Assembly: GCA_016934415.1 (NCBI GenBank)
Contig: JAFGSW010000036.1
Coordinates: 27,571 to 91,570 of the forward strand
Direction of reading: 5' to 3'
DNA: 64,000 bases
Origin: Spirochaetales bacterium
GTDB taxonomy: Bacteria; Spirochaetota; Spirochaetia; SZUA-6; RPPD01
In this document: positions 3,663 to 8,680 of the stretch, in pieces
How the letters are laid out: every line of letters begins with the position of its first letter
How positions within the stretch are numbered: the first letter of the stretch is position 1
The notes under the pieces: generated by a model
The model's input: only the letters and a program-made list of their open reading frames with translations
What the model was told of the DNA's origin: nothing
The model's database searches: none
Position numbers and translations under genes: made by a program

Positions 3663-5222
3663 TCATTTGCCTTTACGCTTCGCGAAGACCGCCTTGAGGG
3701 CGGCGGGCTTGTCGAAGGCCATGGAGAATTCCGCCGCGATCGAGACGATCCGCGTCCCCTCCGTCCAGCGCGTGAAGGAGTAGCCCGCGGCGGGGACGGC
3801 TTCCAGACGCGGCGGCCGACAACATGGCCTCAAGGGTGGCAGTGTCGCCTGCGACTGCGGTGTACTTCCCGGCGATGTCGTCCCATTCGACCAGGTCCAC
3901 ACCGTCCTTCCCATTGAGCCCGGCGTGGCCCTTGAGGCATTGCTCGTCGTAGCGCTCGCGCAGGTTGATGAGGCCCCAATACTCGCCGTTCAGGTACATG
4001 ACGACGGGCGTGTAGGCCTGGAGATCGAAGTCGACCCGGCCGCGTAGGACCTCCTGGATGATGGCGTCGCGCGCTAAGCCGCCGTACTCGCTCCGTGCGA
4101 TCACCGCCAGGGACTTCATGTCGAAGTTGCGGCTGAGCTTGCCCACGACCTTGACGCCGGCCCCCTGGGCGAACCTCAGGACGCCCCCTCGTCGAAATAC
4201 TCGAAGAAGACCGGCCGCTCCCAGTCCCGGTTCCAATTGGCCGTGAGCGGCTTGCCCCTGAAGGTCGTCTCCAGGCCATTGCGCCCCTGAATGTAAATGC
4301 CCGTCTCGGCGCCGAAGAATCCGGCCGGCTCGGTCATGAGGGAGACAACCGGCAGATCCGGCTTTCTCATGCCGATGAAGTAGCTCGAGGCGGCGGAGAC
4401 GCTGGGCAGGTAACCGGCCTGGAATACCTTGGCTTTGACGATGAAGCCGAAGTCCCGTTCGCCCGAGTAGCGGTCCGTAGGGTAGGAGAGGCTGTCGGGG
4501 AAGCGGTAGTGCTGAATGCCGGTTCCATCCTCGCGGTTATTGCCGTATTTTTGCGTGGTCCGCCTGGCCCTGGCGGCGACGAGGGGGGTTGAATAGACGG
4601 GAGCGGCCTCGGTCGGCTCCGAACCGTCAAGGGTGTAGCGGACGACCGAGCCGGGGAGGTCGGAGACGATGGAGACGAGCTGATTTTCCGAGTAAAACCC
4701 GCCCGGGGGCGAGAAGCGGGGCGGGGCCGCCTCGCCCGAGAGTCCGGTCGCCTGATTGGCCGAACCCGGCGTCGGGTTCTCGAAAATGACCAGGCGGTTC
4801 CCCGGCCCGGAAGCGCGGCCGAAGGAACAGCCGGGACGGAGCGCGGGCAGCTTGAGCGAGTCGACCAGTCCCTTGTCGGGCGCGCGCAGCCATATCGTCT
4901 CGCCTTCCGAAGAAAGTAAAAAAGAAGCCCGCAATCCACGGCCCTCCCCGCCGCACTGAATGAGGAGGTATCCTCCCTTGGCGACGGCGGTGCCCCGCGG
5001 GATCGTCCAGCCCCCTTTCTTCGATTTCTTGTCCGAGAGGGTATAACCGCCCAGATCGACGGGCGTTGCGCCCAGGTTGCGGAGCTCGATCCAGTCCGAG
5101 GCCGATCCCCTTCCCACGACACGGCCGCTGGAGCTCAGGGCCTCGTTGATGACGACCTGAGCGTTCGATAAAACTGGAGTCGCGAGGAGAAAGAATGCGA
5201 GAACCGTTGTTCTGGCTTTCAT
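3663..5222 (-). pseudogene. Lamin-tail (LTD) / chitobiase-like C-terminal / CotH-kinase-like exported protein, frame-disrupted
   Basis: ORF 4176..5222 has signal peptide, VVINEALSSSG...DWIELRNLG...GGYTLSDKK (LTD) and YTLDGSEPT (CHB_HEX_C-like). CotH-like continuation (YLNGEYWGLINLRERYDEQ) lies in another frame (3673..4236), and a bacterial-repeat-like end (LEAVPAAGYSFTRWTEGT) in a third (3663..3914). Confidence 0.75.
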
Positions 5223-6817: not shown

Positions 6818-8332
6818 TCACGATTTCCCTTCATTCGGCTTGCCGCCACCTTTGGAAGCGCCGCTTTTGGGAAGCACGGCGTTTGTCAGCTCGTTCAGGC
6901 GCCTGCCGGATTCGAACTCCGCCAGGCTCTCCAGGGTGACGCGGGCGATTTCGGCGAGGGCTTCCCGCGTAAGGAACGCCTGGTGGCTCGTGATGATGAC
7001 ATTATTGAAAGTCATGAGCCTCGCCAGGACGTCGTCGGTAATGATCCGGTCCGAACGGTCCTCGAAGAAGTACCCCTCTTCCTCCTCATAGACATCGAGG
7101 CCGGCGGCCCCGATTTTTTCCGCTTTCAAGCCCTCAATGAGCGCGGCCGTATCGATAAGCGCTCCCCGGCTGGTGTTGATGAGGATGACGCCGGGTTTCA
7201 TCAAGCCTATGGTGCGGCCGTTTATAAGATGGCGGGTTTCTGTCATAAGGGGGGCGTGCAGGCTGATGACGTCCGAACGGGAGAGGAGCTCCTCGAGGGA
7301 CACGTAGGCAAGGCCCGAGGCGGAGGCGAATTCCTCGTCGTGGAGGGCGTCGTGGCCGAGCACGGTCATGCCGAAACCCCGGAGGACGGCCGTCAGGCAT
7401 TTGCCGATCTTGCCGACACCGACGATACCGGCGGTTTTTCCGAAGAGATCGAAGCCTACCAGGCCGGAGAGCGAAAAGTTGCCCTCCCGGACGCGATTGT
7501 AGGCCCGGTTGATTTTCCGGTTCAGGGCCAGGAGCAGGGCCGCGGCATGCTCGGCCACGGCGTGCGGCGAATAAGCGGGCACGCGGGTGACGCTCAGACC
7601 GAGGTCGCGGGCGGCCTCGACATCGACGTTATTGAATCCCGCGCAACGCAGGGCGATGAGCTCCACTCCCTGGCGCTTCAGCTCCTCGAGCACCGGACGG
7701 CTCACATCGTCGTTGACGAAAGCGCAGACGGCCTTGAATCCGGAGCAGAGGAACGCGGTTTCCAGGCCGAGCCGCGGCTCGAAATAATGGAGGGCGAAAC
7801 GGCCGCGGTTGGCAGCCTCGAACGCCTCCCGTGTGTACGGCTTGGTGTCGAAGACCGCCGCCTTCAGGCGCCGGTCGAGCTCCGGCGACAGGAGTTGGGC
7901 GACGGTGCGGGTTTCGGAACGAAGCTGGCGGCTCAAATGGGCGAGCAGCCGGCGGGCCAGATCGACGTTCCGGGACAGAATTTCCTGAAAGGTGTTCTTG
8001 TCCAGTCTGAAAAGTTCGACGTTTCCCTTGGCACGAAGGGTGGCCGAGCGGACGTCCTCGTCGAACAGACTCATGACACCGGCCACCTCGCCGCTGCGGA
8101 GGACGGTGATCTCCACCTCGGCGCCGCCGGGCCCCTGTTTCGTGACGGCGACCTCCCCCGTGACGATGACGAACATTTCCTCCCCGGGATCGCCGTCGCG
8201 GCAGATGACGTCGTCCCGTTTATAATAAACTTGATCCAGCTTCTGCGAGATGAGCGCCAGCGATTCGGGATCCAGTCCCGCGAAAATTTCCGCCTTTTTC
8301 AGCAATTCCGAAAGATCGATTCCGTTCTTCAT
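6818..8332 (-). CDS. Cyclic nucleotide-binding domain fused to D-2-hydroxyacid (D-lactate) dehydrogenase
   Basis: N-term CNB-like GDPGEEMFVIVTGEVAV...GEVAGVMSLFDEDVRSATLRA; C-term LdhA-like AVCAFVNDDVSRPVLEELKRQGVELIALRCAGFNNVD...GKTAGIVGVGKIG...NTSRGALIDT...SHQAFLT. Confidence 0.92.
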   Translation of the reverse strand: MKNGIDLSELLKKAEIFAGLDPESLALISQKLDQVYYKRDDVICRDGDPGEEMFVIVTGEVAVTKQGPGGAEVEITVLRSGEVAGVMSLFDEDVRSATLRAKGNVELFRLDKNTFQEILSRNVDLARRLLAHLSRQLRSETRTVAQLLSPELDRRLKAAVFDTKPYTREAFEAANRGRFALHYFEPRLGLETAFLCSGFKAVCAFVNDDVSRPVLEELKRQGVELIALRCAGFNNVDVEAARDLGLSVTRVPAYSPHAVAEHAAALLLALNRKINRAYNRVREGNFSLSGLVGFDLFGKTAGIVGVGKIGKCLTAVLRGFGMTVLGHDALHDEEFASASGLAYVSLEELLSRSDVISLHAPLMTETRHLINGRTIGLMKPGVILINTSRGALIDTAALIEGLKAEKIGAAGLDVYEEEEGYFFEDRSDRIITDDVLARLMTFNNVIITSHQAFLTREALAEIARVTLESLAEFESGRRLNELTNAVLPKSGASKGGGKPNEGKS

Positions 8333-8680
8333 GTAATTACCTTTCTTCCCTTAAGGGTAAAAAGAAACATGGAACCGGTCAAGTTTTCAACCGGCTGCGA
8401 AGACGCCCGACGGTATGGCGCGTCATGAGCTCCGGGGGGAACCGCTTCATTTGATGAGCATGAGTTGAAATCCTGCAATCCAATCAGAAGCACAGCAAAA
8501 ATTCTGAACGAATAAGGAAAAAGGGAGAGACGCGTGCGCGTCATTGAAATTATCCGAGAACTACGCCCCGATCGACAACCGAATTTTCAGAAGCGTGCCA
8601 AAGATAAAAACCGATCACTGAATCTTCTGTTTTAATTGCATTGGTTCTAGTAAAACGGTACACTGGGTGACGAATAGGCG

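What the first reader, a model, noticed from the sequence alone, without database searches (positions are those of the whole stretch)
6818..8332. D-lactate dehydrogenase with a built-in cyclic nucleotide-binding domain
Seen: a single 504-aa ORF starts with a CNB-like domain (GEVAGVMSLFDEDVRSATLRA, retaining the G-E and R of a phosphate-binding cassette) and continues without interruption into a full LdhA-like enzyme (VNDDVSRPVLEEL, RCAGFNNVD, GKIG, NTSRGALID, SHQAFLT). Established: CNB domains gate kinases, channels and Crp-type regulators, and LdhA is the fermentative D-LDH. Inference: direct allosteric control of lactate fermentation by cAMP, cGMP or another ligand. I do not recall this architecture as characterised.
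Basis: partly seen in the sequence, partly recalled or inferred. Interest (0 to 1): 0.72.

Follow-up and report, generated by a model that had tools for sequence, protein, structure and literature searches.

The report
Lactate dehydrogenase with CRP-type sensor domain
A fermentation enzyme that makes D-lactate carries, in one protein, the signal-sensing half of a CRP-type gene regulator; the fusion arose once and is conserved in at least 12 uncultured bacterial species, and its altered pocket suggests the signal may not be ordinary cyclic AMP.

Summary
The minus-strand ORF 8332-6818 (504 aa) is a CRP-type cyclic-nucleotide-binding (CNB) domain (residues 7-155, with C-helix and hinge) followed without a break by a complete LdhA-type D-lactate dehydrogenase. 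It is not an assembly error: 11 other species carry the same fusion, mostly Spirochaetota plus two genomes of a small separate phylum. The LDH halves form one clade (99/97), so one fusion event fits, and the CNB half is under strong purifying selection. The ribose-binding Glu (CRP E72) is V/I/M in all 12, and its salt-bridge partner (CRP R123) is Q/K/Y/H. The anion-binding G85, R95 and S96 are invariant, and the cassette is the most conserved stretch of the domain. This resembles the cassette of NtcA, which binds 2-oxoglutarate. Best reading: an LDH allosterically gated by a CRP-type sensor for an anionic ligand, either an atypically bound cyclic nucleotide or a small metabolite. The genome has at least 10 class III cyclase domains, so cyclic nucleotides are probably present. 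Ligand and regulation are untested. New variant of the known CNB-gated enzymes.

The parts
6818..8332 (-). Complete CNB-LdhA fusion gene, 504 aa
   Evidence: fusion found in 11 other genomes
7868..8314 (-). CRP-type CNB sensor, residues 7-155: N-helix, beta roll, cassette, C-helix 123-147, hinge
   Evidence: PF00027 at residues 35-122; matches M. tuberculosis CRP over residues 6-155; AlphaFold secondary structure
8036..8092 (-). Phosphate-binding-cassette equivalent, residues 81-99 GEVAGVMSLFDEDVRSATL; V86 stands where CRP has E72; G85, R95, S96 and A97 invariant
7892..7966 (-). Predicted C-helix, residues 123-147; invariant S134, L137, R138, A145, L147; Q136 at the position of CRP R123 / NtcA R129
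6887..7867 (-). LdhA-type D-lactate dehydrogenase, residues 156-482; catalytic residues R389, E418, H450; D328 at the end of the NAD-binding beta strand

Best explanation
The protein is an NAD-type fermentative D-lactate dehydrogenase (pyruvate + NADH to D-lactate) with the sensor half of a CRP-family regulator fused to its N-terminus. The LdhA stands after the CRP hinge, where CRP carries its DNA-binding domain. Proposed mechanism: the sensors pair through their C-helices; an anionic ligand is held by G85/R95/S96 of the cassette and reaches the C-helix; binding shifts the C-helices and hinge, and so alters the subunit arrangement or cooperativity of the LdhA multimer, switching lactate production up or down. 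The ligand is an anion: either a cyclic nucleotide bound without the usual ribose-Glu contact, or a small metabolite such as a 2-oxoacid or sugar phosphate. Shown: the fusion, its single clade, its conservation, the pocket residues and the intact catalytic residues. Inferred: that the domain binds a ligand, dimerises as in CRP, and regulates LDH activity.
For: Domain calls and PDB matches. The CRP similarity runs through the C-helix to the hinge (CRP R142 = R155, invariant) and then goes straight into LdhA. The ten complete fusion LDH halves in the tree form one clade, support 99/97, in 98% of bootstrap trees. The cassette is the most conserved 19-residue window of the CNB (mean pairwise identity 0.72 against 0.45 for the rest). 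Synonymous sites are saturated while CNB pN is 0.045 between L090 and L097. All 12 keep G85, M87, S88, R95, S96, A97. Catalytic R389/E418/H450 are invariant in every member that covers them. LDHs of this subfamily are already allosteric tetramers, and two of three studied respond to fructose 1,6-bisphosphate and metal ions (PMC4230899). The genome has at least 10 class III cyclase domains over cut-off and 23 CNB matches.
Against: No binding or kinetic data. The AlphaFold model (15 sequences, mean pLDDT 74.6, pTM 0.45) has a low-confidence linker (142-151), so domain packing and oligomer are unknown. No conserved gene neighbours point to a signal. Some CRP-family sensors have become ligand-free (PMC12937710), so a purely structural role is possible.
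Confidence: 0.6

Rival explanations
1. Canonical cyclic-nucleotide control: cAMP or cGMP binds the CNB domain and directly gates LDH, despite the missing Glu.
For: PF00027 well over cut-off; R95-S96-A97 of the cassette invariant; at least 10 class III cyclase domains in the genome. Epac CNBs also lack the Glu (cassette GQLALV in PMC2246266 Table 1) and, from general knowledge, still bind cAMP.
Against: The ribose-contacting Glu is V/I/M in 12/12 and the CRP R123 partner is Q/K/Y/H. Most other CNBs in the same genome keep the F-G-E motif, so the loss is a property of this protein.
Confidence: 0.3
2. Direct metabolite sensor: the pocket binds a small anion (a 2-oxoacid such as 2-oxoglutarate or pyruvate, or a phosphorylated glycolytic intermediate), giving feed-forward or carbon-nitrogen control of LDH.
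For: At the start of the cassette the family matches NtcA's G-V-L-S rather than CRP's G-E-L-G, with the Arg kept. In NtcA the Gly/Arg pair holds the 2-oxoglutarate carboxylate (PMC12937710). Losing the ribose contact while keeping the anion site fits a smaller anion.
Against: NtcA's R129 and E134, which also contact 2-oxoglutarate, are not conserved here (Q/K/Y/H at 136; T/N/G/I/A at 141). After the Arg the motif stays CRP-like (R-S-A-T, not R-F-Y-H).
Confidence: 0.3
3. The CNB domain is a ligand-free assembly module that only sets oligomeric state or localisation.
For: Some CRP-family proteins bind no ligand (PMC12937710); the ribose Glu is lost; no conserved neighbours.
Against: The cassette is the most conserved part of the CNB, with G85, R95 and S96 invariant. 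In the ligand-free proteins of that review the cavity is filled with salt bridges, whereas here a hydrophobic residue replaces the Glu.
Confidence: 0.2
4. Assembly or annotation artefact joining two genes.
For: The genome is a draft in 102 contigs.
Against: The fusion occurs in 11 other genomes, forms a single clade, and both halves are under purifying selection.
Confidence: 0.01

Closest known systems
Fermentative LdhA-type D-lactate dehydrogenase (P. aeruginosa 5z20, E. coli 3wx0/5z1z, F. nucleatum 5z21)
   Same: Residues 154-480 align end to end, about 50% identical, catalytic Arg/Glu/His conserved
   Different: Those enzymes have no N-terminal sensor domain; about 150 residues are added here
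CRP/Fnr-family sensor domain (E. coli CRP; M. tuberculosis CRP 3d0s)
   Same: Beta roll, cassette with G, R, S, A, long C-helix and hinge
   Different: No helix-turn-helix: LdhA follows the hinge. Cassette Glu and C-helix Arg are replaced
NtcA (2-oxoglutarate-sensing CRP-family regulator)
   Same: Cassette begins G-V-L-S, with the Glu replaced by a hydrophobic residue and the Arg kept
   Different: NtcA's R129 and E134 are not conserved here; no DNA-binding domain
Other CNB-gated enzymes: mycobacterial acetyltransferase Pat, CNB-pyridine-nucleotide oxidoreductases, PKA/PKG, Epac
   Same: A CNB domain coupled to a catalytic function as an allosteric switch
   Different: Different enzyme; Kannan et al. 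2007 list no CNB-dehydrogenase family

Membership tests
CNB superfamily (PF00027) | CNB domain above the curated family score | tested here: met
   79.7 bits against cut-off 27.5; predicted helices and strands in CNB order
Canonical cAMP/cGMP-binding CNB | Cassette Arg (CRP R82 / PKA R209) that holds the cyclic phosphate | tested here: met
   R95 invariant in 12/12
Canonical cAMP/cGMP-binding CNB | Cassette Glu (CRP E72) that contacts the ribose | tested here: not met
   V/I/M at residue 86 in 12/12
Canonical cAMP/cGMP-binding CNB | Binds cAMP or cGMP | not testable with these tools
   Needs ITC or fluorescence binding
CRP/Fnr transcription factor | C-terminal helix-turn-helix after the hinge | tested here: not met
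   LdhA follows the hinge; Pfam finds no HTH
LdhA-type D-lactate dehydrogenase | PF00389 + PF02826 with end-to-end similarity to fermentative D-LDHs | tested here: met
LdhA-type D-lactate dehydrogenase | Catalytic Arg, Glu, His and NAD-type Asp | tested here: met
   R389, E418, H450 invariant; D328 conserved except Asn in two members
LdhA-type D-lactate dehydrogenase | Reduces pyruvate to D-lactate with NADH; tetrameric | not testable with these tools
   Needs the purified enzyme
NtcA-type 2-oxoglutarate sensor | Cassette Gly, hydrophobic residue and Arg (NtcA G76, V77, R88) | tested here: met
   G85, V/I/M86, R95
NtcA-type 2-oxoglutarate sensor | C-helix R129 and E134 that contact 2-oxoglutarate | tested here: not met
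   Q/K/Y/H at 136; T/N/G/I/A at 141

The most novel reading that the evidence does not exclude
The CRP-type domain has been retooled to sense a metabolite (2-oxoacid or sugar phosphate) or another non-cAMP anion, making this a central-metabolism enzyme gated directly by a CRP-type sensor with a ligand specificity not yet described.
Probability: 0.3. Interest if true: 0.75.

Novelty: new variant of a known kind. Interest (0 to 1): 0.55.

Why it matters
CRP-type signalling usually controls metabolism through transcription. Here the sensor is built into the fermentative enzyme itself, so a second messenger or metabolite could set lactate output within seconds. The invariant non-canonical cassette is a clean, testable case of how CNB domains change ligand. 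In the window's genome this is the only LdhA-type gene found, and no member of the L-LDH/malate dehydrogenase family PF02866 was found (genome about 93% complete), so the switch may control the cell's main lactate branch.

Tried and rejected
Assembly error: rejected (11 other genomes). Repeated independent fusions: not needed; one clade with 99/97 support. Function from gene neighbourhood: immediate neighbours are shared only by the closest pair, L090 and L097. L091 as a clostridial gene, per its record title: doubtful, because its phylum holds only 6 genomes in the collection, two with the fusion, so it is neither Clostridia nor Spirochaetota there. AlphaFold: too weak at the linker to judge domain packing; its fold search listed only dehydrogenases in the top 50. 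dN/dS could not be computed as a ratio for most pairs because synonymous sites are saturated. A collection-wide search for other CNB + 2-hydroxyacid dehydrogenase fusions with a canonical cassette was not possible: one scan only, and its patterns came from this family.

Full report
Observation. The minus-strand ORF 8332-6818 encodes 504 aa. Pfam finds cNMP_binding at residues 35-122 (E 1.6e-22) and the two domains of a D-isomer 2-hydroxyacid dehydrogenase from 159 to 482 (E 3.6e-29 and 6.7e-53). In the PDB the second half matches fermentative D-lactate dehydrogenases end to end, best P. aeruginosa LdhA 5z20, E 8.5e-113, and Foldseek on the AlphaFold model agrees. The first 160 residues alone match PKG, PKA and CRP structures; with the M. 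tuberculosis CRP the match runs over residues 6-155.

Not an artefact. In the window's own assembly the gene sits at 34.4-35.9 kb of a 91.6-kb contig. The same fusion is a single open frame in G002 (70% identical) and G018 (62%) of the same order, in four genomes of family f68 elsewhere in the phylum (G242, G229, G263, G205) and in G424, in L095 and, cut by a contig end, L093 = G271, and in G435 (L091) and G438 (L146). That makes 12 species with the window's. Record titles place most of them in Spirochaetota. G435 and G438 belong to a phylum with only six genomes in the collection, so the title 'Clostridia' is doubtful and transfer between phyla is likely. In the window's order 3 of 26 genomes carry the fusion. 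In the sample of 393 genomes of the phylum, the window's genome and five others carry it in full and one in part. It is rare but widely scattered.

One origin. In a maximum-likelihood tree of 56 LDH sequences the ten fusion sequences form one side of a branch with 99/97 support, in 98% of bootstrap trees. G002, G018 and G424 also carry a separate, sensor-less LdhA. The window's genome shows only the fusion as an LdhA-type match; its next 2-hydroxyacid dehydrogenase match is far weaker (35% identity). It has no match to PF02866, the L-LDH/malate dehydrogenase family.

Selection. Between L090 and L097 synonymous sites are saturated (pS 0.84) while the CNB has pN 0.045. Other pairs give CNB pN of 0.23-0.28, again against pS of 0.73-0.77. 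The sensor is maintained, although in four of the five pairs it evolves somewhat faster than the LDH half.

The pocket. Aligned with CRP and NtcA (sequences checked against PDB entries), the window residues correspond as follows: G85 = CRP G71; V86 = E72; R95 = R82; S96 = S83; A97 = A84; Q136 = R123; E140 = T127; T141 = S128. The cassette's real Glu, which contacts the ribose (general knowledge) and in CRP is salt-bridged to the C-helix Arg (PMC12937710), is gone together with that partner. The cassette is nevertheless the most conserved 19-residue window of the domain (0.72 against 0.45). That points to a conserved anion site with altered recognition of the rest of the ligand. Most of the other CNB domains in the same genome keep F-G-E, so this is a property of the fusion family. 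None of the non-fusion loci confirmed in the genome scan carries the GE[VLA]AG[IVM]MS motif, although that scan's patterns were themselves derived from this family.

NtcA comparison. Kannan et al. 2007 (PMC2246266) give the NtcA cassette as GVLSLLTGSDRFYHAVA. NtcA binds 2-oxoglutarate, with Gly76 and Arg88 holding one carboxylate and Arg129 and Glu134' reaching the ligand from the C-helices (PMC12937710). The fusion family shares the Gly-hydrophobic-[LM]-Ser...Arg part and not R129 or E134. It is NtcA-like at the cassette but does not meet the definition of an NtcA-type 2-oxoglutarate site.

Mechanism. CRP-type sensors pair through the C-helix and pass ligand binding to the domain after the hinge (PMC12937710; PMC6243067). 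Here the domain after the hinge is an LdhA, of a subfamily whose characterised members are tetramers with cooperative and, in two of three, effector-activated kinetics (PMC4230899). The simplest reading is that ligand binding re-sets the C-helices and changes the LDH assembly or its cooperativity. The model predicts a 25-residue C-helix (123-147) but the linker 142-151 is of low confidence, so the geometry is inference. The genome has at least 10 class III cyclase domains over cut-off, so cyclic nucleotides are probably present; this keeps atypical cyclic-nucleotide binding in play.

Novelty. CNB domains fused to or gating enzymes are a known kind (acetyltransferases, oxidoreductases, kinases). 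A CNB-LdhA fusion is not in the Kannan classification, and no paper found in the library searched here describes it; subscription literature was not searched. It is best rated a new variant of a known kind.

Noticed in passing
window 8348-8357: A perfect 10-bp palindrome CCCTTAAGGG lies just upstream of the Shine-Dalgarno-like AGAAAGG of the fusion gene; possible operator, read by eye.
   Followed up: no
window 3663-5222 (-): A gene with lamin-tail (LTD) and chitobiase C-terminal domains looks split over overlapping frames (4176-5222 and 3673-4236), as if frameshifted; sequencing error or decayed gene.
   Followed up: no
fusion residue C44, window 8201-8203 (-): A cysteine at residue 44 of the CNB is invariant in all 12 fusion members but is not shared by CRP, NtcA or three other CNBs of the genome; possible redox role.
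   Followed up: partly
L095 5995-7449, L096 5983-7434: These two fusion members have Asn in place of the NAD-type Asp (window D328), which may change NAD/NADP preference.
   Followed up: no
L091 65-1528, L146 7-1464: The fusion also occurs in two genomes of a phylum with only six genomes in the collection; L091 nests inside the Spirochaetota fusion clade, so horizontal transfer is probable.
   Followed up: partly
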